Shown piece by piece: positions 1 to 43,323 of a stretch of 43,789 nucleotides of DNA. The stretch comes from Chloroflexota bacterium (lineage in GTDB: Bacteria > Chloroflexota > UBA6077 > SHYK01). Positions within the stretch are counted from its first letter, which is position 1. Each line of letters begins with the position of its first letter. The notes beneath the pieces were generated by a model. That model did not search any database. It was not told the DNA's origin and worked only from the letters and a program-made list of their open reading frames with translations. The stretch is from positions 1 to 43,789 of the forward strand of contig DASRDP010000143.1 of the NCBI GenBank assembly GCA_035652535.1, in the 5' to 3' direction. A program made the translations under genes and the position numbers.

Positions 1-821
1 GCCAGCATGTTTGCAAACGCCGCGTTTTGGTCGCCGATGAACATGAACCGGATCCGGTCGATCTTCGGTCGCCCCAGAACGTGCTGGTCGAACGCGGTTG
101 CCTCCATGAACGAGCCGGGCTCCCAACGGCTGAGCTTAAAAGGCCCCGCACCGACAAACTCCGTGTCCCAGTAGTGGCTCTCCCTGATGGCCTTTGGATC
201 ACCGAGGGCAAAGGTCGATTCGAGCAGATGTCGCGGCAACGGGACCAGTCCCATTCGGGAACCGGTTCCCAGAAGCACCCCGGCGTCGGGGTACGGACCC
301 TTCCAGTGGATTGTCAGCGACCGGTCGTCGTCCGCGCTCACGCGATCCATCTGGTTGTACGGTGCGATGCCGGTCCGAAAGCCGATCTCCGGCGTCGCAT
401 TCTCAAAAGTGAACACGAAGTCGCTTGCGGTGAGCGGCGCCCCGTCGTGCCAGACCAGATTCGGCTTCAGGCGGTAGTGAGTCTCCATCGTCCCGTCGGG
501 GAACACCACCCAGCTATCGTCGTGCAGAGCCGGCAGCGCCTCGGCGAGGTACGGGTGAGAGATGCTATCGCCGTCGTACAGGTCCAGAAACGCGCTGAAG
601 GCGCGCGTCCAGAAGTCGCTGGCGCCCAGGCCAGCCATCGGCGCCAGCGCAGCGATGAATTGCGGCTCGCCCTCGATCGATACAACGAGCACGTGCTCCG
701 CGTGCGGTTCCGCAGCCTGCCCCGCCCGTTGAGCGGGTTGAGGAGCGGGCATGCATGCGGCAACCACAAACGCGGACAGGACCAGCATGGAGGTGCGAGG
801 ATCTGGGAGCCACGCTGTCAT
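1..821 (-). CDS. Family-5 ABC solute-binding lipoprotein (partial, C-terminus beyond window)
   Basis: The minus-strand reading frame is open from an ATG at 821 to the window edge, so only the N-terminal ~273 residues are visible. It begins with a lipoprotein signal peptide: a hydrophobic stretch ending in the lipobox V-A-A-C at residues 20-23. Further in it has the SBP_bac_5 hallmark P-D-G-T-M...Y-R-L-K-P-N...W-H-D-G-A-P-L-T-A. Proteins of this family are membrane-anchored extracytoplasmic receptors for peptides or other organic solutes that deliver ligand to an ABC importer. The start is supported by GGAGG six bases upstream. It lies 12 bp after the amidohydrolase stop and is the third gene of the Rieske-amidohydrolase-SBP operon. 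No transporter permease or ATPase gene is visible. The ligand cannot be predicted. Confidence 0.88.
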   Translation of the reverse strand, partial: MTAWLPDPRTSMLVLSAFVVAACMPAPQPAQRAGQAAEPHAEHVLVVSIEGEPQFIAALAPMAGLGASDFWTRAFSAFLDLYDGDSISHPYLAEALPALHDDSWVVFPDGTMETHYRLKPNLVWHDGAPLTASDFVFTFENATPEIGFRTGIAPYNQMDRVSADDDRSLTIHWKGPYPDAGVLLGTGSRMGLVPLPRHLLESTFALGDPKAIRESHYWDTEFVGAGPFKLSRWEPGSFMEATAFDQHVLGRPKIDRIRFMFIGDQNAAFANML

Positions 822-8287: not shown

Positions 8288-10039
8288 ATGGGACGGGGGA
8301 TCCTGTGGGTACTTCGCGACAGGGTGCGGTGGCACGCGTCCCGCGCATTCGTGCTTCTGGTCACCGCTCTGGTTGGATGCACGACCACACCCGCAAGCGT
8401 CGGCCAATCAACAGCGCCGAGGGACACGGGGCAGGCAGACCGCCCGCTGGTGATTCTGGTCGGCGTGGAACCGGCCACGGTCGCAACGAGGGGATTTGTC
8501 CAGAAGGGAGCAGGCCTCCACGTCGCGCTGCGCATCTTCAACGCGCTGCCCACCCTCATCGATGCCCGGGGCCAACCTCAACCCGAGCTGCTCGCAAGCA
8601 TCCCCGCGCTCCACACCGATACGTGGCAGGTGTTTCCCGATGGCACCATGCGCACTCTGTACACCTTGCGGCCCAATCTCACGTGGCACGACGGCGAGCC
8701 GCTCACCGCGAACGACTTCGAGTTCGCCTGGCACGTGTATTCCACGCCCGAGCTTGGCCTCGCCAGCCAGCCGCCCATGTCGTCGATCACAGACCTGGAA
8801 GTTCTCGATCGCGAGCACTTCGTGATCAACTGGAGCGTGCCCTACCCCGATGCCAACACCCTCTCGCTGTACAACCGGGAGTTCCCCCCGCTCCCGCAGC
8901 ACATCCTGGCGGGCGCTTTCGATCAGATGGCGTCGACCGGTCGCGATGCGTTCGCCACCAATTCGTTCTGGGGACCCGAATACATAGGAGCGGGACCCTA
9001 CCGCATGCAGCAATGGCAGCAGGGCGGGTCCATCGACGCGATCCGGTTTGAAGGCTACCCGCTGGGCGCGCCAAAGATCGCTCGCATCCAGCTGCGATTC
9101 GGGAACGATCAGAACGTGGTGATGGCGACGCTGCTTTCGGGGGAGGCGCACGTGGCGACGGACAGCTCGATCGCCCAGGCTGCCGAGACCTTACGGGCGC
9201 AGTGGGCCCAGACGAACGATGGCGCGGTCTTTCGCTGGCCCAACGCCTGGCACGCCACGGCCTTCCAGCTTCGCCCCGATTTAGCAAATCCGAACGCCAT
9301 TCTCGACGTCCGCGTACGAAAGGCAATCGCGCACGCCATCGACAAACAGGCGATAAACGAGGCCGTGTACGCGGGCCAGGCGATCTTCGCCGATACGCCC
9401 ATCTGGGAAGGCTCGGCATGGGGCGAGGCCCTGGATGACTCCATCACGACGTATCCGTATGATCCCCGAACCACTGAGGCGCTGATGAGTCAGGCCGGCT
9501 TCGTCAAAGGGAGCGACCGCTTCTACCAAGGAGCGGACGGGCGGCTGTCGCTCGAGCTGGTCACGAATCAGAATCCCGATTTCGTTCGCGAGATTCTCGT
9601 GATGGCCGATGGGCTCGGTCGCGCGGGGTTCGATATTCAACAGAAGGTGCTCCCGTCCGCGCAGTCGCGGGATGGGCAGGTCCGCGCGACATTCCCTTCG
9701 ATGTTCACGAGCAATACAAACCTGGGTGATTCCGCGCTGAACTACCTGGCGATTAGCCAGATCCCCAGCCAGGCGAACCGATGGGTTGGAGGCAATCGCG
9801 GTGGCTGGGTCTCCCCGGAGTTTGACCGGATCCTCAGCAGCTTCAACACCACGCTGGATCGCGGAGAGCGCGTGGACCTGGTGCGTCAGATGCTTCGCAT
9901 TTACAGCGACGACCTACCGCTGGTGTCGCTCTTCTTCAGCGCGCAGCCGTTCGCCTACGTTCGAGGGTTGACAGGTCCCGCTATCGCCGTTCCGGAGTCG
10001 AACCTCGCATGGAACGTGTACGAGTGGGAGTTCAGGTAA
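8288..10039 (+). CDS. Family-5 ABC solute-binding lipoprotein
   Basis: 583 residues. An N-terminal lipoprotein signal ends with lipobox L-V-G-C at about residues 28-31. The mature part has the family-5 pattern: V-F-P-D-G-T-M-R-T-L-Y-T-L-R-P-N-L with W-H-D-G-E-P-L-T-A after it, then D-V-R-V-R-K-A-I-A-H-A-I-D and a C-terminal W-N-V-Y-E-W-E-F-R. Length is normal for the family, so it looks intact. It should be a membrane-anchored receptor for an organic solute in an ABC import system. The ATG has AGGAG seven bases upstream. The amidohydrolase gene follows after 46 bp and is probably co-transcribed. This is the same pairing as at 1-1997, with gene order reversed. No permease or ATPase genes are present. 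Confidence 0.92.
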   Translation: MGRGILWVLRDRVRWHASRAFVLLVTALVGCTTTPASVGQSTAPRDTGQADRPLVILVGVEPATVATRGFVQKGAGLHVALRIFNALPTLIDARGQPQPELLASIPALHTDTWQVFPDGTMRTLYTLRPNLTWHDGEPLTANDFEFAWHVYSTPELGLASQPPMSSITDLEVLDREHFVINWSVPYPDANTLSLYNREFPPLPQHILAGAFDQMASTGRDAFATNSFWGPEYIGAGPYRMQQWQQGGSIDAIRFEGYPLGAPKIARIQLRFGNDQNVVMATLLSGEAHVATDSSIAQAAETLRAQWAQTNDGAVFRWPNAWHATAFQLRPDLANPNAILDVRVRKAIAHAIDKQAINEAVYAGQAIFADTPIWEGSAWGEALDDSITTYPYDPRTTEALMSQAGFVKGSDRFYQGADGRLSLELVTNQNPDFVREILVMADGLGRAGFDIQQKVLPSAQSRDGQVRATFPSMFTSNTNLGDSALNYLAISQIPSQANRWVGGNRGGWVSPEFDRILSSFNTTLDRGERVDLVRQMLRIYSDDLPLVSLFFSAQPFAYVRGLTGPAIAVPESNLAWNVYEWEFR

Positions 10040-30669: not shown

Positions 30670-32382
30670 CTACTGGAGGACCCAAGTCTCGATGTTCCAG
30701 TACACGTTTGTCTCGGGCGGCTCTTCGTGCGGTCCTTTGAGCCCCGCCGCCGCGGCCCAGACGTTGGGTGGGAAGACGAGCGAGATCGCGGGGAGGTTTT
30801 CGCCAAAGACGTGCGCCATCTGCGTCATCTGCTGCCCGCGCTGGTCACGGTCGAGGGTCGAAATGAACTGGTTGACGAGATCGGTGTATGTGGGATCCGT
30901 CCAGCTCAGTTGCGAGCCGCCCCGCCAGCCATTGTCGGGCGTCGGGATGTTCCCCGGGACCGGCGATTCGACCGTTCGTTCGGTGGCGGGAATGGTCGTG
31001 ATCGCTACACCCGGGTACCCGAATTTCGTCGCGAGGTCGAATGCCTGGGCCGGCGGGATGATGCGCTGATCGGCTTTGAAGCCCGCGGTCTCCCAGTTCT
31101 TGGCGAGGATGGCCGCCTCGTTCCCGTCGTTGGTCCCGGCGCGCAGCTCCATGGCGAAAGGGCCGTCCGTCGGGCTGGAGTAGATGCCGTCGGGTCCCTT
31201 CTCGTAGCCGGCCTCACGCATGAGCTGGTCGGCGAGTCGCACGTCAAGGTCGTGCTTGACGACGCCGCGCTGCACGTCCGGCCCCCACTGGCTATTGGGG
31301 GGTAAGAAGAAGTCGGCCTCCGTCGCGATTCCGGCGAAGATCGCCTCGTTGATTCCGGGTTTGTCGATGCTATGCGCGAGAGCGCGCCGAACGCGAACAT
31401 CGGTGAGGGAGCGTGGCGTGGTAAGGCCAGGGAGAAATTGGACGATCACCCCGTGCCAGACGAAAACCTGATAGAACACGCTTCCGCCCTGGCGCCCCTG
31501 CCATTGCTGTTGAAGGGAGAGCGATTGGGGTATCCGCAGCGCGGTGGCCGAGGCGAGGTCGACGTCCCCGCTCAGCATATTGGCGAGGACGGTATCTGGG
31601 TCTGAAATGAAGACCAGCTTCATGCGATCGATCTTGGGGCGCCCGGTGGCATGGCCGTCGAAGGCGGCGGCCTCCAAATATGCCCCCGGCTCCCAGCTCG
31701 TGACGCGATATGGGCCGAGGCCGACGAACCCGTGCGTCCAATACCGATTGTCGACGAAGTCCTCCACGGACTGGCTGTTGAACGATTCTTCGAGGAGGTG
31801 CCGCGGCAGCGCGGGGAGGTTTCGGTCGCGACCCGTCATGTGGGCCGCATCCGGATAGAGCTGTTTCCATCGAACAACGAATGTGCGGTCGTCGGTCGCC
31901 TCTACTTCGCTGATGGCGTTGAAGGGGGGCTGTGACGCCAGGCCGACATCCGGTTTCGCGTACACCCGCCATCCAAAAACGAAGTCGCCAGCGGTGAGTG
32001 GCGCACCGTCGTGCCACGTCAAGTTCGGGCGGAGGCGGTATGTTGTCTCCATGCGGCCGTCCGGAAACACCTTCCACGTGTCGGAGTTGATCTCGGGCAG
32101 CGCCTCTACGAGGTAGGGGCGCGGGACGGCCTGCTCATCGACGTTGGCGATGTCGGCATTGAAGATGCGCCGATGGTCGACGTTGGAGACCTCCTCGGTC
32201 GGCGGCCGGAGCGCGAGCCCTTTCGGCTCGAGGCGTAGGGCCACGACAAGCGTTCGTTGCCGGGACGTCTCTCCACCTGACGGCGCGTTCTCACTCGGCC
32301 GTCCGGCGCTCGGCGCGCTGGCCGTGCAGGAGAGAAGCAGGGAGGTGAGGAGTAGGATTGCCACCCGCGCGGTTCTGGTCAT
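30670..32382 (-). CDS. Family-5 ABC solute-binding lipoprotein
   Basis: 570 residues from the ATG at 32382 (GGAGG nine bases upstream); the frame runs on to 32505 but without a signal-like sequence. Lipoprotein signal I-L-L-L-T-S-L-L-L-S-C at the N-terminus. Family-5 markers: V-F-P-D-G-R-M-E-T-T-Y-R-L-R-P-N, W-H-D-G-A-P-L-T-A, D-V-R-V-R-R-A-L-A-H-S-I-D and C-terminal N-V-Y-W-N-I-E-T-W-V-L. It appears intact. Downstream, on the same strand, is the TctC-type lipoprotein gene after 21 bp. No ABC permease or ATPase is nearby. Upstream lies a decayed histidine kinase. Ligand cannot be predicted. Confidence 0.92.
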   Translation of the reverse strand: MTRTARVAILLLTSLLLSCTASAPSAGRPSENAPSGGETSRQRTLVVALRLEPKGLALRPPTEEVSNVDHRRIFNADIANVDEQAVPRPYLVEALPEINSDTWKVFPDGRMETTYRLRPNLTWHDGAPLTAGDFVFGWRVYAKPDVGLASQPPFNAISEVEATDDRTFVVRWKQLYPDAAHMTGRDRNLPALPRHLLEESFNSQSVEDFVDNRYWTHGFVGLGPYRVTSWEPGAYLEAAAFDGHATGRPKIDRMKLVFISDPDTVLANMLSGDVDLASATALRIPQSLSLQQQWQGRQGGSVFYQVFVWHGVIVQFLPGLTTPRSLTDVRVRRALAHSIDKPGINEAIFAGIATEADFFLPPNSQWGPDVQRGVVKHDLDVRLADQLMREAGYEKGPDGIYSSPTDGPFAMELRAGTNDGNEAAILAKNWETAGFKADQRIIPPAQAFDLATKFGYPGVAITTIPATERTVESPVPGNIPTPDNGWRGGSQLSWTDPTYTDLVNQFISTLDRDQRGQQMTQMAHVFGENLPAISLVFPPNVWAAAAGLKGPHEEPPETNVYWNIETWVLQ

Positions 32383-33236: not shown

Positions 33237-33716
33237 CTATTCCCGCGGGCAGGCCAGCTCGATGAAGTTGCTCGACGGATCTTTGAGATAAATTGACTGG
33301 GCGACCGGACACGGCGCCGGGTGCTCCACCGGTCCTTCAAAGGGTATGTCGCATCGCGACAGCACGTCGATCGCCCGTTCCAGTTCATCGGTCGATACGG
33401 TGAGCGCGATCCGGGGAGTGCCTCGCATCTGTTCCGGCGGGGGCTCCTGCACATGCTCCTGATACAGAAACAACGGTATCAGCGTTTCGCCGACGCGGAC
33501 GCTGCTATGCGGCGCTATGACGTTCCCCGAACCGGTCGTCCCGCGCATTTCGCGCAGCCGCTTGCCGCGAATGATCTCGTCCGTCGTGAGTCCGCTTCGA
33601 TCTTCAATTCTCCCATAACCGAAGATCTCGCCGAGGACGTCGCAGTAGAACCGTTCGGCGAGGATCAGATCGTTGACGGCCAGCACGGTGTGATCGATCT
33701 CCAGGAATTCTTCCAT
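33237..33716 (-). CDS. VOC-superfamily protein
   Basis: 159 residues from the ATG at 33716 (GAGGA five bases upstream); an ATG eight codons earlier, at 33740, is possible. Single-chain VOC fold: F-L-E-I-D-H-T-V-L-A-V at the start supplies a His, and S-S-N-F-I-E-L-A-C-P at the end supplies a Glu. The central ligand His seen in the VOC protein at 11276 is not present (R-I-A-L-T-V), so the metal site may differ. It sits 55 bp after the VOC-Rieske fusion gene on the same strand and is the last gene of a group SBP - fusion - VOC. Its stop codon lies at the broken end of the kinase pseudogene. Possibly a glyoxalase or extradiol-type enzyme; substrate unknown. Confidence 0.84.
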   Translation of the reverse strand: MEEFLEIDHTVLAVNDLILAERFYCDVLGEIFGYGRIEDRSGLTTDEIIRGKRLREMRGTTGSGNVIAPHSSVRVGETLIPLFLYQEHVQEPPPEQMRGTPRIALTVSTDELERAIDVLSRCDIPFEGPVEHPAPCPVAQSIYLKDPSSNFIELACPRE

Positions 33717-33771: not shown

Positions 33772-34545
33772 TCAGGTTGCGGCCGGAACTGGGACCATCC
33801 TTTTCGCTTCCGCGGGCGACCGCGCGATGTTACGGTCCGTATCGACGATAACCTGTCCGTCCTGAATCTCGACGGCATATGCCATGAGAGGCGGAACGCC
33901 GGGGGTGTGCCCGATGTGCTCGCCCTTTCTCGTGAATTTGTTGTAGTGGCACGCGCAATAAAAGCGGTAGTGCTCCGGTTGATATACGAGGTTGCACTGC
34001 ATATGCGTACAGGTGTGGTTCAGGGCCAGGATACCGTCCTCCAGGCGCACAATGAAGAATTTACCGTCTTTGATGTGCGTGATGGAGCCGACCGGAAAAT
34101 CCTCGATCTTGCCCGCGACCATCTTGCCGAGACCTGCCGCCGGCACCTGGAACGATTCCGCAGAAAAGGCCGTCACCTGGAGCTGATGGCCATCGGGGTC
34201 GACGAAGTACTGGCTGATCTCTCCGACGGACCGCTGCCCGAGGTCGCCTCGAAAGTCGCCCTTCAAGCACCCCGTCTCTCGAAGTCGGTCGACGACGCGA
34301 TGGTAGTCCTCGATGGTGAGCAGGAAATCCGTGTGCACGCCGGGCCCGTCGCGCTTGACCTCGGGAACCTCGACGAGGACGAGGTACTGGCCGGCACTGG
34401 TCTGAAACGTGCTGTTCGGCCGATCCTCGTTCCAGAGGTCCCGACCAACGTGCACGAGGCCGACGGCTTCCTTGAAAAACTGCTCCGAGCGCGCCAGGTC
34501 GGCGACTTCCAGCATCACGTGACTGAGCTGGCCCGGTCGTGGCAT
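33772..34545 (-). CDS. Fusion protein: VOC domain + bc-type Rieske [2Fe-2S] domain
   Basis: 257 residues from the ATG at 34545, with GAGGAGG seven bases upstream; the frame extends to 34818 but that part overlaps the SBP gene. Residues 1-125 are a VOC domain (L-S-H-V-M-L-E-V-A-D-L; His9, and Gln123 where a metal Glu is usual). Residues about 140-240 are a Rieske domain: C179-T-H181-x-x-C184 and C197-A-C199-H200, then a Gly/Pro loop and Q-V-I-V-D. C184 and C199 are the extra pair that forms a disulfide in bc1/b6f-type Rieske proteins; ring-hydroxylating oxygenases and their ferredoxins lack it. There is no signal peptide or anchor, so it should be cytoplasmic. It lies 11 bp after an SBP gene and 55 bp before a VOC gene. 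A redox-coupled VOC enzyme, or an electron donor to the Rieske oxygenases, are both inference. Confidence 0.88.
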   Translation of the reverse strand: MPRPGQLSHVMLEVADLARSEQFFKEAVGLVHVGRDLWNEDRPNSTFQTSAGQYLVLVEVPEVKRDGPGVHTDFLLTIEDYHRVVDRLRETGCLKGDFRGDLGQRSVGEISQYFVDPDGHQLQVTAFSAESFQVPAAGLGKMVAGKIEDFPVGSITHIKDGKFFIVRLEDGILALNHTCTHMQCNLVYQPEHYRFYCACHYNKFTRKGEHIGHTPGVPPLMAYAVEIQDGQVIVDTDRNIARSPAEAKRMVPVPAAT

Positions 34546-34556
34546 GCAACCCTCCT

Positions 34557-36278
34557 CTAGTTGACGTCCCAGTCCGCGGCGTTCCAGGACACGCTGGTGC
34601 GTGGGCTCGTATCTCCGCGAACGCCGCGGACGCCCTCGCGAAAGATCGCGACGTTGATGTTGAAGTACAGCGGAAGCACGGCGACCTCCTCGGTTTCGCT
34701 CCGGATGAGCTGGCGGTACAGCTCCCGGCGCTCGTCGGTGTCGATCGCTCGGAGCAATGCGTCGACCACGCGGTCCATCGCCTCGTTTTGATAGCAGCCG
34801 CGGTTTCCGCCCTGCCACCGGGTCTGCTCGGTCGGACAGTCGCGGCCGTACAGCCGCTTGAGGGTGTTCCCCTCGCCGAGCGGGATGGACGTGATGTCGA
34901 AGGCCGCGAAGCTGGCGCGGGCCTTCGTGTCTCGCATGAGGGGCTCGGGGATGACGGACTGGTCAACGGCGAGACCAGCGCTTCTCCACGAATCGGCAAT
35001 GATGGCCAGCTCCTGCTCGCTCTGTGCGCCGGCCGTTGTCCAGATGGGGAGCGCGACCCGCTCACCTTCCCTGTTCACGACTTGGCCATCGGCGCCGACG
35101 CGCCAACCTGCCTCGGTGAACAGCTCCCGAGATCTCCGGAGGTCATACGCGTAGCGAGCGGTGACGTCATCCACCCATGCGGATCGAGGATCGTCCGGCG
35201 GGATGAACGAGTCGGAGACGGGGGCCTGCCCGTCGAGGACCGTATTGACCAGCGCCTGGCGATCGATAGCATGCAGCAGCGCGCGGCGAACGCGCACGTC
35301 CAGAACCTCGCGCGGAGTGGGATTCCGAAACTGCACACCCACGAAGCGCCAGTGAGTGGTTTGGATGACGACGAGCGGATCGTGCCCGGCCCGCTGCCAT
35401 TCCTGGCGTACCAGCATCGCTTGAGAGAACGAGATTGCCTTGTTGTCCAGGGCCCCGTCGACGGAGCCCGCGAGCAGACTGGCGACGACAGTCTGCTCGT
35501 TGGTGATGAAGCGCAGGATGATTTCGTCGAGCTTCGGGCGGCCCGTATAGAAGCCGTCGTACGCAGACAGCGTGAGGTGGCTTCCGGGCACCCAGCTCTC
35601 CATCTGGAAGGGACCGACTCCGACGAACTCACGCGTCCAGTACGGAAGCTGCTGAAAGCGTTGCTTGTCGGTGGCATAGACGTCGCCGAGGAGGTGATCG
35701 GGGAGTGGACCCAGCTCGTCGGTCACAATCGCATTGCCCCACGGACTCGTCTCGGACCACTCCGTCACGAGCGTGTATTCGTCGGGCGTGTCGATGCGGG
35801 TGATCAAGCGGGCGACAGCAGGGAAGAGAGGGAGATCCGGGTCGCGGGCGACGGTCCACGCAAGGAGGAAGTCCCGTGCGGTGAGCGGCGTTCCGTCGTG
35901 CCAGGTCACGTCGTGGCGGAGACGGTAGGTGACCTGCATCGTGCCGTCGGGCCGCACGACCCAGGAGCCATCGTCTCTGGATGGGACGGTCAACGCCAGC
36001 ATCGGGTGGAGGTCGCCTCGGTCGTCATACGTTACGAGCTGCTGGTGCACCGCGAGCCGAAAATTCTGCGCGATGGTTCCCGAACCGCCACCGCCGCCGA
36101 GGTTCGCCATCACGATATACTCCGGCTCTCCCCCGAGCGCGATCGTGAGGCTCTTGCGTCCGACTGGCGGCGCGGAAGTGTCGCCGGTTGCCCCACGACT
36201 GGGCGCGGGTGCCTCGCGAGAGCACGCGCCCAACAAGGCGACCAGGCCCACGATTGCGACGGTCCGCCGCGGCCACAT
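34557..36278 (-). CDS. Family-5 ABC solute-binding lipoprotein
   Basis: 573 residues from the ATG at 36278; a TTG four codons earlier is closer to a GGGGAG but would leave no spacing. Lipoprotein signal V-G-L-V-A-L-L-G-A-C. Family-5 markers: V-R-P-D-G-T-M-Q-V-T-Y-R-L-R, W-H-D-G-T-P-L-T-A, D-V-R-V-R-R-A-L-L-H-A-I-D and a C-terminal V-S-W-N-A-A-D-W-D-V. An unusual Gly run (G-G-G-G-G-S-G) follows the first strand of the mature domain. Intact. It is followed by the VOC-Rieske fusion 11 bp downstream and then by a VOC gene, so receptor and oxidative enzymes appear to be one transcription unit. Divergent from the methyltransferase gene; no transporter partner genes. Confidence 0.92.
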   Translation of the reverse strand: MWPRRTVAIVGLVALLGACSREAPAPSRGATGDTSAPPVGRKSLTIALGGEPEYIVMANLGGGGGSGTIAQNFRLAVHQQLVTYDDRGDLHPMLALTVPSRDDGSWVVRPDGTMQVTYRLRHDVTWHDGTPLTARDFLLAWTVARDPDLPLFPAVARLITRIDTPDEYTLVTEWSETSPWGNAIVTDELGPLPDHLLGDVYATDKQRFQQLPYWTREFVGVGPFQMESWVPGSHLTLSAYDGFYTGRPKLDEIILRFITNEQTVVASLLAGSVDGALDNKAISFSQAMLVRQEWQRAGHDPLVVIQTTHWRFVGVQFRNPTPREVLDVRVRRALLHAIDRQALVNTVLDGQAPVSDSFIPPDDPRSAWVDDVTARYAYDLRRSRELFTEAGWRVGADGQVVNREGERVALPIWTTAGAQSEQELAIIADSWRSAGLAVDQSVIPEPLMRDTKARASFAAFDITSIPLGEGNTLKRLYGRDCPTEQTRWQGGNRGCYQNEAMDRVVDALLRAIDTDERRELYRQLIRSETEEVAVLPLYFNINVAIFREGVRGVRGDTSPRTSVSWNAADWDVN

Positions 36279-39747: not shown

Positions 39748-41067
39748 ATGTTGAGCAAAGAAGCGAATGAGCTGCTGACGCGTGTTGGTCCGGGAACGGT
39801 AATGGGCGATCTCATGCGGCAGTACTGGATGCCATTCCTCTATTCGTGGGAGATCGAGCCGGATGGCGCTCCCTTGCGCGTGCGGCTCCTCGGTGAGGAC
39901 CTGATCGCATGGCGGGACACCGATGGTCGCGTCGGCCTGATCAACCAGTACTGTCCCCACCGCGGCGCATCGTTCTTCTTTGGTCGCAACGAGGAACGGG
40001 GGATTCGTTGCGTCTACCACGGTTGGAAGTTCGACGTGGATGGGAACTGCACCGATATGCCCAACGAGCCGCCCGAGAGCAACTTCAAACACAAGGTGAA
40101 GGCTACGACGTACCGGTGTGTAGACCGAGGCGGAGTGGTCTTCGCCTACATGGGTCCGCTTCAGGACAACCCGCCGGGATTGCCCCAGTTCGAATGGATG
40201 ACCGTTCCGGCGGTTCAGCGGCACCACGAGTACAAGGCAGTCCTGGAATGCAATTGGGTGCAGGCACTCGAGGGAGATATCGACACGGCGCACCTGTACT
40301 TCCTGCACAGCCGTCTCGATCCGAGCCAGAATCCCGCGACGGGCGTTTACCACCCGGATCGGTCCCCGCGACTGGAGATCACCGAGCAAGAGTACGGGCT
40401 ACTCTACGGTGCGCGCCGCGTCGAAGGGCCAGACAGAATCTACTGGCGTACGACGCAGTTCCTCATGCCGATCTACACCATGTTTCCCGCGAGCGAGGAC
40501 GGGATCGTGCCGTCCCACATCTATACGCCCATTGACGACGAGCACACCCTCCATTGGGGCGTTCGCTGGCATCCTGTGCGGGAGTTGCCGGAGCGTGAGC
40601 TCATGAGCAACAAGGCGGAGATCGCTGGGATGGGGCACATGCGCGAGGAGCAGCACGGAAAGTTCTTCGCTCACTGGTGGCCAGCGGCGCGACAGGACAA
40701 CGACTTCCTGCTCGACCGCGACGTTCAGCGATCGCAGACCTACACCGGCATCCCGACGATTCGGCTCCAGGACGCCGCGGTCATCACGAGCATGGGCCCC
40801 ATCCAAGACCGAACGACCGAGCGGTTGGGCACAACGGATGCGATGATCATCAAGGTGCGCCAGCGGCTCATGCGCGCCGCGACCGCTCTGCGCGAGCATG
40901 GTATGGCCCCGCCGGGCGTGGATCGGCCCGAAGCCTATCGCGTGCGGTCGGGGTCCGTCGTCCTCGCCGATGGCCTGGACTGGAAAGCGGCCATGGCGGC
41001 ATGGCACGAAGGCCGGGATACAGAGCCCCCCTCGGTCACGGTGGCCCGGGCCGGCGGCTCCGTCTAG
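39748..41067 (+). CDS. Rieske non-heme iron oxygenase, closest of the four to phthalate 4,5-dioxygenase
   Basis: 439 residues starting M-L-S-K-E-A-N-E-L-L-T-R-V-G-P-G-T. Rieske ligands C69-x-H71 and C88-x-x-H91. The catalytic motif A-L-E-G-D-I-D-T-A-H-L-Y-F-L-H gives bridging Asp179, His182 and His187. Further C-terminal, Y-W-R-T-T-Q-F-L-M-P and T-P-I-D-D-E-H-T-L-H-W resemble known phthalate 4,5-dioxygenase oxygenase subunits more than do the other three copies. GGGAG and CGGGAA precede the ATG. It follows the ThDP-enzyme gene and is itself followed by a tandem repeat and two damaged binding-protein genes. The natural reductase partner is absent. Aromatic-acid dihydroxylation or O-demethylation is the likely reaction class. 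Confidence 0.93.
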   Translation: MLSKEANELLTRVGPGTVMGDLMRQYWMPFLYSWEIEPDGAPLRVRLLGEDLIAWRDTDGRVGLINQYCPHRGASFFFGRNEERGIRCVYHGWKFDVDGNCTDMPNEPPESNFKHKVKATTYRCVDRGGVVFAYMGPLQDNPPGLPQFEWMTVPAVQRHHEYKAVLECNWVQALEGDIDTAHLYFLHSRLDPSQNPATGVYHPDRSPRLEITEQEYGLLYGARRVEGPDRIYWRTTQFLMPIYTMFPASEDGIVPSHIYTPIDDEHTLHWGVRWHPVRELPERELMSNKAEIAGMGHMREEQHGKFFAHWWPAARQDNDFLLDRDVQRSQTYTGIPTIRLQDAAVITSMGPIQDRTTERLGTTDAMIIKVRQRLMRAATALREHGMAPPGVDRPEAYRVRSGSVVLADGLDWKAAMAAWHEGRDTEPPSVTVARAGGSV

Positions 41068-41075
41068 CGTCAGTC

Positions 41076-41138
41076 GGCGTACGGCGTACGGCGTACGGCG
41101 TACGGCGTACGGCGCACGGCGCACGGCGCACGGCGCAC
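41076..41138. repeat. Heptanucleotide tandem repeat, nine units in two homogeneous blocks
   Basis: Nine perfect 7-bp units start nine bases after the Rieske stop codon: five of GGCGTAC (41076-41110) followed by four of GGCGCAC (41111-41138), then a partial unit GGCAT. The two types differ by a single T/C and are not interspersed. With a 7-bp period three units are 21 bp, so the repeat stays open in several frames, but no gene runs through it. Confidence 0.95.
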
Positions 41139-41299
41139 GGCATCTCGATCTCGCCCTCTGCCAACCCGAGAAAGTCGCGCATTCTTCGTCTTGTGCTGTT
41201 CCAACGGTGGGGGCACCGACCGAATGCTCGACGACCCTGGTCGGATCACCCCGGCGCCAGCCTCCGGTCGGCGCCGGCGCCTGTGATATCGTTGTTGTC

Positions 41300-41596
41300 A
41301 ATCGCCCCGCGTGGACGAATCCCCAGGACGATCAGCTCGATGCTGCGTGGGACTCGACCCTCGATCCGACGGAGCGCGGCAACTCCGTCGCTCAGCTCAT
41401 GGCGCTGATCAGCGAGAACCTCCCGGGCTATTCGCTCTACTTCCTGCAAGTGGTGAATAGCTGGGTCGCCGGGCTGCAGGGCCCAACCGCCGGGAAGGAA
41501 AGCACCGGGTTCGGCCAGACCAGTCGCGGGACGACGAACTACTGGAGCATCCAGGATTGGACGTTGGCGGGGCCGGAAAGGACGGCGCAGCAATGA
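41300..41596 (+). pseudogene. 3' remnant of a family-5 solute-binding protein gene
   Basis: About 98 codons matching only the C-terminal end of family-5 binding proteins: A-W-T-N-P-Q-D-D, S-T-L-D-P-T-E-R-G and E-N-L-P-G-Y-S-L-Y-F align with S-W-T-D-P-T-Y-T, S-T-L-D-R-D-Q-R-G and E-N-L-P-A-I-S-L-V-F of the intact protein at 30670-32382, and the end N-Y-W-S-I-Q-D-W-T-L matches N-V-Y-W-N-I-E-T-W-V-L. The N-terminal ~480 residues are absent, there is no start codon or signal peptide, and a tandem repeat lies 160 bp upstream. The last codon overlaps the ATG of the next binding-protein gene (ATGA), so the pair was once a coupled operon. Confidence 0.8.
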
Positions 41597-43323
41597 CCGC
41601 GATCCATCGGAGGTTCCCGTTCACCCGACTGAGCGCTTCCGTCGTGCTGGTCGTCTTTGCGCTGGGGTGCGCTGCCCCTCAGGCGCCCCAGGCTGCGCGC
41701 GAAGGAGCGACCTCCGCGCCCCGCGCTCCCAAGCGGCTGGTGGCCGCGATGAAGACGATCCCACCGTTTCTCTACAACCAGCTCAACCCGGCGAACGTCG
41801 GCGGCGGTGTCGAGCTTGCCGAGCTGGTCAACAGCGGAATGGTTACGATGGGCGACAGCGGCCTGCTGGTGCCGCGGCTGGTGACCGAGGTTCCGTCAAC
41901 CGAAAACGGGCTCTGGGTGGTTTAGCCGGACGGCCGCATGGAAGTCACCTGGAAGCTGCGCCCCAACGTTCGGTGGCACGACGGCGCGCCCTTTTCAGCC
42001 GACGACCTGACCTTCACCCTGGACGTTGTTCGCGATCCGGATCTGGCCGTCCTGCGGGATCGGACTTATGAGGCGATTGAGGGCCTCGATGTTCCCGACG
42101 CTCGAACGGTGGTGGTCCGCTGGAGCCGACCGTACATCGAAGCGGATCAGCTCTTTTCATCGGTGTTCTCCGATCTCGCCGTCCCGATGCCCCGGCACCT
42201 TCTGGAGCGGGCATTTCGCGACGATCCGGCCAGCTTTCTCGACCTCCCCTATTGGAACGCGGAGTTCGTTGGGACCGGCCCCTTCAAGGTCCGGGAGTGG
42301 GAGCGCGGCAGCTACATCACCCTAGACGCAAATGACGACTATACCCTGGGCCGTCCGAAACTCGACGAGATCGAGGTGCGCTTCATCACCGACGACAATA
42401 CCCTGATCGCCAACATCCTGTCCGGTCAGGTCGCCCTCACCCTCGGGCGCGGGCCATCCATCGAACAGGCGCTGCAGGTCCAGGAGCAGTGGCGCGACGG
42501 GCGCGCCGATTTTCAGGCGCTGGATAGCTGGCTGCTTCTCTATCCCCAGTTCCTCAACCCGACGCCACCCATCGTCGCCGACCCGCAGTTCCGTCGCGCG
42601 CTGATCTCGGCCATCGATCGGCAGCAGCTCGTCGATAGCATCGAAGCCGGCCAAACGGTCGTCGCCCCAAGTCCGATCAGTCCCCACTACGCCGGCTATA
42701 CGGACATCGATCCATCCATCGTGAAGTACCCGTATGACCCGCAGCGCGCGGCGCAGATGCTGGAAGGCCTCGGGCTGACGAGGGATTCGGCCGGGATGTT
42801 GCGCGACGCGGCGGGCCAGCGGCTGTCGGTCGGAATCCAGGTCACCACGGTCCTCGACGTCCAGCCCAAGTCGGCCTACCCCGTGGCGGATTTCTGGCAG
42901 CGAGTCGGGGTTGGCGTCGACATCGACGTGGTGCCACCCCAGCGGGGGCAGGATTTGCGCTATCGCGCCGAGTTTCCTTCCTTCGCCCTCCAGCGACAGC
43001 CTGTGAATGAGCGCATGCTCATTCGCATTGACGGATCACAGGCTCGCACACCGGAGCGCGGGTACACCGGGATCAACAACGCTCGGTATGTGAACCCGGA
43101 CGTCGATGCGCTCCTTGCCCGAGTGGAGACCACCATTCCGGTTCGCGAGCGCAACGCCGCGATCGCGCAGCTCGTCCATCGAATCACGGACGAGCAGATC
43201 TGGATGGGGCTGTTCTTCGACACGGAGCCCGCGCTGATCGCCAACTCGCTGGCCAACGTGACAGCAAAGCACGACGAGTCGCGCGAGACGTGGAACGCTC
43301 ACCTGTGGGATGTCAAGAGCTGA
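41593..43323 (+). pseudogene. Family-5 solute-binding lipoprotein gene interrupted by one in-frame TAG
   Basis: The reading frame starts at the ATG at 41593 with a lipoprotein signal (V-V-L-V-V-F-A-L-G-C) and continues in the same frame to 43323, except for a single TAG at 41923-41925, codon 111. The stop falls inside the conserved motif: L-W-V-V-stop-P-D-G-R-M-E-V-T-W-K-L-R-P-N, where relatives have F or R. All else is intact, including W-H-D-G-A-P-F-S-A and a normal C-terminus N-A-H-L-W-D-V. It is a very recent nonsense mutation, an assembly error or a read-through codon. If translation restarted at the ATG at 41938 the product would lack the signal peptide. Either way it belongs with the Rieske gene upstream. 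Confidence 0.85.

What the first reader, a model, noticed from the sequence alone, without database searches (positions are those of the whole stretch)
33772..34545. VOC domain fused to a bc-type Rieske iron-sulfur domain
The sequence shows one 257-residue chain with an N-terminal VOC module and a C-terminal Rieske domain carrying C179-T-H181-x-x-C184 and C197-A-C199-H200. The extra Cys pair marks the high-potential bc1/b6f class, not the ring-hydroxylating-oxygenase ferredoxins. Bc-type Rieske domains are normally membrane-anchored on the outer face of the membrane; this one has no signal peptide. I know of no described enzyme with this architecture. The neighbours are a binding lipoprotein 11 bp upstream and a separate VOC protein 55 bp downstream. 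It could be a self-sufficient redox VOC oxygenase, or the missing electron donor for the four Rieske oxygenases.
Basis: partly seen in the sequence, partly recalled or inferred. Interest (0 to 1): 0.78.

Follow-up and report, generated by a model that had tools for sequence, protein, structure and literature searches.

The report
VOC-Rieske fusion family with VOC partner
A bacterium carries a small cytosolic protein that joins a metal-pocket (VOC) domain to an electron-carrying Rieske iron-sulphur domain borrowed from respiration; the same fusion recurs 28 times in four related genomes, almost always beside a second VOC gene, so it is probably the electron-feeding part of an undescribed VOC enzyme system.

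Summary
Window 33772-34545, minus strand, encodes 257 residues: VOC (7-125) plus Rieske (145-222), both above Pfam cut-offs. It is not an assembly join: 28 full-length copies occur in four genomes of one phylum (four in this genome), under purifying selection. 'High-potential' is not supported: the cysteine pair is missing from 21 of 28 copies and the potential-raising serine from 27 of 28 (22 of 24 bc relatives keep it). The proteins are soluble. Twenty-one of 28 have a single-VOC gene directly downstream and six more have another VOC gene in the operon; fusion and partner co-diverge. One type of family-5 binding protein lies within 3.5 kb of 18 of 28. Rieske oxygenases nearby are no more frequent than chance (7 seen, 5.8 expected), and a relative with 44 of them lacks the fusion, so a general oxygenase-donor role is unlikely. 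Best explanation: a redox subunit that passes electrons to the iron of a VOC-fold oxygenase or dioxygenase, at each turnover or by ferredoxin-like reactivation. Activity and substrate are unproven.

The parts
33772..34545 (-). VOC-Rieske fusion gene, 257 aa
   Evidence: 28 homologues
34171..34527 (-). VOC domain (residues 7-125); metal-site positions H9, H71, Q123 (FosA-type H/H/E positions, with Glu replaced by Gln)
   Evidence: Pfam; alignment to FosA structures; conservation (H71 invariant, H9 at least 90%)
33832..34128 (-). Rieske domain (residues 140-238), bc-type by ancestry
33946..34011 (-). Rieske cluster ligands C179, H181, C197, H200 and the potential disulfide pair C184/C199
   Evidence: the four ligands are invariant in 28 copies; the extra Cys pair is in 7 of 28, always both or neither
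33237..33716 (-). partner single-domain VOC protein, 159 aa; the family keeps H9 and E153 in all 19 aligned copies
34557..36278 (-). family-5 solute-binding lipoprotein (SBP_bac_5); genes closest to this one lie within 3.5 kb of 18 of 28 fusion copies

Best explanation
The fusion is the cytosolic redox subunit of a small VOC-fold metalloenzyme encoded by a two-gene (VOC-Rieske, VOC) or three-gene (VOC-Rieske, VOC, VOC-VOC) operon with its own substrate-binding lipoprotein. SHOWN: domain make-up, recurrence, operon structure, co-divergence with the partner VOC, conservation of the four cluster ligands and of two VOC metal-site histidines, bc-type ancestry of the Rieske domain, absence of the membrane anchor and of the potential-raising residues. 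INFERRED: the Rieske cluster takes single electrons from a cytosolic donor and passes them to a mononuclear iron held in a VOC pocket, most likely the partner's (His/Glu site), with the fusion's own VOC domain (H9/H71/Q123) docking or sharing substrate or metal. The electrons either drive O2 activation at each turnover (a VOC counterpart of Rieske oxygenases) or re-reduce iron that has become ferric (as XylT-type ferredoxins do for catechol 2,3-dioxygenases). Substrate: probably an aromatic compound; unknown.
For: 21 of 28 copies have a single VOC gene immediately downstream on the same strand, some with overlapping ends; of the other seven, three are followed by a larger VOC protein (one a single+double VOC in one 448-aa chain, two cut by contig ends), one by a VOC-VOC gene, two sit in one tandem with a VOC gene, and one has none. 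Mirror-tree correlation between the fusion's domains and the partner VOC: r 0.79-0.86 overall, 0.66-0.67 within clade B, Mantel p 2e-4 (shared species ancestry contributes). Cluster ligands C179, H181, C197, H200 and VOC H71 are invariant, H9 at least 90%. The partner family keeps H9 and E153, and its best PDB relatives include small VOC proteins named dioxygenase-related. Soluble. Catabolic surroundings: LigXa-type Rieske oxygenases, UbiD decarboxylase, cupins, amidohydrolase-like genes. Reactivation of VOC-fold extradiol dioxygenases by small iron-sulphur proteins is a known job (PMC2590616).
Against: No activity, substrate, metal content or potential is known. The fusion's own VOC site has Gln in place of the usual Glu in most copies, and the partner in the window has Ile where clade B has the middle His, so either site may be weak. 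No FNR-type reductase domain was found in the genome (PF00175; PF00970), so the electron source is unidentified. The single-sequence structure model was too poor to use (mean pLDDT 42), so geometry is untested.
Confidence: 0.5

Rival explanations
1. Electron donor for Rieske oxygenases: the Rieske domain acts as the ferredoxin of the genome's roughly 100 oxygenases, and the VOC domain only docks.
For: The genome has 132 Rieske hits and 99 LigXa_C hits but no PF00175, PF00970 or PF14759 reductase, so donors are missing; the potential-raising residues are lost, as in low-potential ferredoxins.
Against: Oxygenases near the fusion are at chance level, 7 seen against 5.8 expected; G005 has 44 LigXa-type oxygenases and no fusion; the constant neighbour is a VOC gene; only 4 fusion genes for about 100 oxygenases here.
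Confidence: 0.15
2. XylT-like reactivator only: the Rieske domain merely rescues oxidised iron of the partner VOC dioxygenase and takes no part in turnover. (This is the narrower of the two modes inside the best explanation.)
For: Functional precedent with plant-type ferredoxins (PMC2590616); partner VOC in the same operon.
Against: Known reactivators are separate plant-type [2Fe-2S] ferredoxins, not Rieske and not fused to a VOC domain; one redox fusion per enzyme operon suggests stoichiometric use (inference).
Confidence: 0.25
3. Non-catalytic: the fusion is a redox or oxygen sensor or a substrate-binding accessory, with the VOC domain a binder like bleomycin-binding proteins.
For: Gln instead of Glu at the third metal position in most copies; many VOC proteins only bind (general knowledge).
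Against: H71 invariant and H9 nearly so; purifying selection on both halves; operons with further VOC genes and binding proteins, no regulator as constant neighbour.
Confidence: 0.1

Closest known systems
Rieske subunit of cytochrome bc/b6f complexes (closest solved: 9rk4, anammox bacterium Kuenenia, PMC12954380)
   Same: Sequence ancestry of the Rieske half; same four ligands; window copy keeps the disulfide cysteines
   Different: No membrane anchor, no cytochrome b neighbour, VOC half in front, H+2 serine lost in 27 of 28, Cys pair lost in 21 of 28
Rieske oxygenases (LigXa type, four in the window)
   Same: Would pair a Rieske cluster with a mononuclear non-heme iron site, in catabolic cassettes with binding proteins
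   Different: Catalytic fold would be VOC, not the oxygenase alpha-subunit domain (LigXa_C, Ring_hydroxyl_A); Rieske half of different ancestry
VOC proteins: FosA/FosB/glyoxalase I, ChaP, small 'biphenyl-2,3-diol 1,2-dioxygenase III-related' proteins
   Same: Sequence family and metal-site positions
   Different: None of the solved ones has a Rieske domain; third ligand is Gln in most fusion copies
XylT-type ferredoxins that reactivate catechol 2,3-dioxygenase (PMC2590616)
   Same: Small [2Fe-2S] protein encoded beside a VOC-fold dioxygenase
   Different: Plant-type cluster, stand-alone protein
Arsenite oxidase small subunit AioB (PMC3758308)
   Same: bc-like Rieske proteins in which a Phe/Gly pair replaces the disulfide in some members; clade B here has Gly and Phe/Tyr/Met at the two positions
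   Different: Partner is a molybdenum subunit; no VOC domain

Membership tests
bc/b6f-type Rieske protein | CxHxxC and CxCH motifs with the disulfide Cys pair | tested here: inconclusive
   Met by the window copy, not by 21 of 28 family members
bc/b6f-type Rieske protein | Common ancestry of the Rieske domain with bc Rieske proteins | tested here: met
   Tree: 28 fused domains together (89/99) on the bc side, apart from oxygenase and ferredoxin Rieske domains (94/93)
bc/b6f-type Rieske protein | Membrane anchor or signal, and gene next to cytochrome b | tested here: not met
bc/b6f-type Rieske protein | Serine at H+2 (potential tuning) | tested here: not met
   1 of 28 fusions against 22 of 24 bc relatives; effect of Ser on potential from PMC12954380
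VOC superfamily | Profile match to VOC families | tested here: met
   Pfam E 1e-7 above cut-off; family profile hits FosA, FosB, glyoxalase structures. The fold itself was not modelled well
VOC superfamily | Metal ligands H/H/E | tested here: inconclusive
   H9 and H71 conserved, third position mostly Gln, Glu in some copies
Rieske oxygenase | Catalytic domain of the oxygenase alpha subunit (LigXa_C, Ring_hydroxyl_A) | tested here: not met
   No such match in the fusion
Rieske oxygenase | Electron transfer from Rieske cluster to mononuclear iron | not testable with these tools
   needs biochemistry
XylT-type reactivating ferredoxin | Plant-type [2Fe-2S] domain | tested here: not met
   Rieske domain instead
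XylT-type reactivating ferredoxin | Encoded with a VOC-fold dioxygenase and restores its iron | tested here: inconclusive
   Neighbour VOC gene present; activity untested

The most novel reading that the evidence does not exclude
A separate way of building a Rieske-driven non-heme iron oxygenase: the operon encodes a VOC-fold oxygenase whose Rieske electron-entry module was taken from the respiratory bc complex, retuned and fused to a VOC subunit, independently of the classical Rieske oxygenases.
Probability: 0.25. Interest if true: 0.88.

Novelty: new variant of a known kind. Interest (0 to 1): 0.6.

Why it matters
VOC enzymes (extradiol dioxygenases, glyoxalase I, FosA and others) are known without a built-in redox partner, and respiratory-type Rieske domains as parts of membrane or exported enzymes. 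A conserved fusion of the two, in an operon with further VOC proteins, points to a redox-driven VOC enzyme class that can be tested directly. It also bears on how organisms with about a hundred Rieske oxygenases but no recognised flavin reductase move electrons. A 2025 review states that no self-sufficient Rieske oxygenase has been identified (PMC12445004).

Tried and rejected
Assembly join: rejected, 28 intact copies in four genomes with the same order. Mesorhizobium hit L038: spurious, a short low-identity match with no gene of this kind. The genome-contig scan used exact peptides of the window copy and finds only close relatives, so absence elsewhere is not proven. Apparent VOC-Rieske-VOC fusion in G001 C333 (L118): a broken copy with a lost linker and shifted frame. 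The flag '1 TAA' in copy C163:19967 is its own stop codon. The 24 of 24 Cys pair in bc relatives is by construction (they were picked by that motif) and is not used as evidence; the serine count is not affected. Papers: searches for VOC or glyoxalase with Rieske fusions found none describing it.

Full report
What is there. The gene lies on the minus strand, 34545 to 33772, 257 residues. Pfam gives a VOC domain at residues 7-125 and a Rieske domain at 145-222, all above curated cut-offs. The best solved relatives of the Rieske half are bc/b6f Rieske proteins (9rk4, E 1e-13), those of the VOC half FosA-type proteins; no solved chain listed covers both halves, even with the family profile. Upstream (11 bp) is a family-5 binding lipoprotein, downstream (55 bp) a single-domain VOC protein.

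It is a family, not an accident. The own genome (G000, 4.45 Mb, 98% complete) has three more full-length copies at 35-40% identity. Two other genera of the same family (G001, G002) and one genome that is the only one held of its class (G040) bring the total to 28; none of the other genomes among 400 of the phylum, or among 29 of the class, has the fusion at these thresholds. G001 also has one broken copy. Orthologous pairs across genera show dN/dS of 0.07-0.19, with saturated dS. The tree has two well-supported clades, A (9 rows, the window's) and B (19 rows); the G040 copies sit inside clade B, which suggests horizontal transfer between classes.

The Rieske half. Cluster ligands C179, H181, C197, H200 are invariant in all 28. 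The extra cysteines occur as both or neither: both in 7 of clade A, neither in 2 of clade A (Ala or Ser with Arg) and in none of clade B (Gly with Phe/Tyr/Met). The paired loss supports a real disulfide where both are present. In a Rieske-domain tree the 28 fused domains form one group (89/99) on the bc side, away from the window's oxygenases and a stand-alone ferredoxin-like Rieske protein (94/93); deep branches within the bc side are unresolved. The nearest stand-alone relatives in the phylum have an N-terminal hydrophobic anchor and lie beside what look like cytochrome b genes (gene identity read from the sequence, not searched). The fusions have no membrane segment. The serine that hydrogen-bonds the cluster in bc proteins is present in 22 of 24 relatives and 1 of 28 fusions; losing the Ser or Tyr lowers the potential by about 130 or 65 mV in yeast (PMC12954380). 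In arsenite oxidase a Phe/Gly pair can stand in for the disulfide without lowering the potential (PMC3758308), so the cysteines alone do not decide it. A lowered potential is therefore likely but inferred.

The VOC half. The positions of the FosA metal ligands align with H9, H71 and Q123 (which FosA residues are ligands is general knowledge). H71 is invariant, H9 at least 90%, the third position is Gln in most copies and Glu in some. It may bind metal weakly, bind substrate, or dock the partner.

The operon. Twenty-one of 28 copies are followed directly by a single-VOC gene (gaps -28 to 119 bp). Of the other seven, three are followed by larger VOC proteins: L039 by a 448-residue single+double VOC chain, L071 and L076 by VOC genes cut at contig ends. 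L081 is followed by a VOC-VOC gene, two copies sit in a tandem with a VOC gene in L063, and only L070 has none. Clade B operons mostly add a VOC-VOC gene. The single+double VOC chain hints that these subunits work together. Distances of the fusion's domains and of the partner correlate (r 0.79-0.86 overall; 0.66-0.67 in clade B alone). Partner VOCs keep His9 and Glu153 in all 19 aligned. A binding protein closest to the window's 34557 gene lies within 3.5 kb in 18 of 28.

Not the general donor of Rieske oxygenases. The genome has 132 Rieske hits and 99 LigXa_C hits. Near the fusions, 7 oxygenase genes were seen in 208 kb of flank against 5.8 expected from their density in this genome, and G005 has 44 LigXa-type genes without any fusion. 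The donors of these oxygenases remain unknown: PF00175 and PF14759 are absent from G000, and PF00970 from all five genomes tested.

Mechanism. The most economical reading is that the Rieske module delivers electrons to iron in a VOC pocket of the same complex. Whether this is used at each turnover or only to rescue ferric iron, as plant-type ferredoxins do for catechol 2,3-dioxygenase (PMC2590616), cannot be told from sequence. Shown: architecture, recurrence, operon, conservation, ancestry. Inferred: complex formation, metal identity, electron path, aromatic substrate, lowered potential.

Novelty. Both domain families are well known; the fusion and its operon were not found in the papers or structures searched, with the limits that most subscription papers are missing and other phyla were only searched for close relatives. 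I rate it a new variant of a known kind, with a plausible path to a new oxygenase type.

Noticed in passing
whole genome G000; also G001, G002, G005, G040: 99 LigXa_C-type Rieske oxygenase hits in G000 (74, 69, 44 and 24 in the others), yet PF00970 is absent from all five and PF00175 and PF14759 from G000: the electron donors of about a hundred oxygenases are unidentified. SAR202 bacteria were reported with up to 62 (PMC6946804).
   Followed up: partly
L039:8590-9936 (minus): 448-residue protein that joins the single VOC and the VOC-VOC proteins of the same operon type into one triple-VOC chain.
   Followed up: partly
L118:4005-5411 (G001 C333): Broken VOC-Rieske copy: linker lost and frame shifted between the two domains.
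   Followed up: yes
window 3-692, 8288-10039, 30670-32244, 34557-36278, 41207-43323: Several family-5 binding-protein genes in 44 kb without obvious permease genes; the one at 41593-43323 is interrupted (41593-41925 and 41938-43323), and 41207-41596 looks like a remnant C-terminus.
   Followed up: no
window about 41070-41170: Short tandem repeat coding VRRTAYG-like units in the spacer after the Rieske oxygenase gene 39748-41067.
   Followed up: no
clade B fusions, N-termini (e.g. L039:12328-13197, L065:6448-7317, L078:4425-5306): A conserved N-terminal extension with a motif like LPxxSDExPxFxGG that clade A lacks.
   Followed up: no
L112:3641-3994 (G000 C112): Stand-alone 117-residue Rieske protein that looks like an oxygenase-type ferredoxin, a candidate donor for the oxygenases.
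   Followed up: no
L080, L081, L082 (G040): Copies from a genome of another class nest inside clade B of the fusion tree, suggesting horizontal transfer of the operon.
   Followed up: partly
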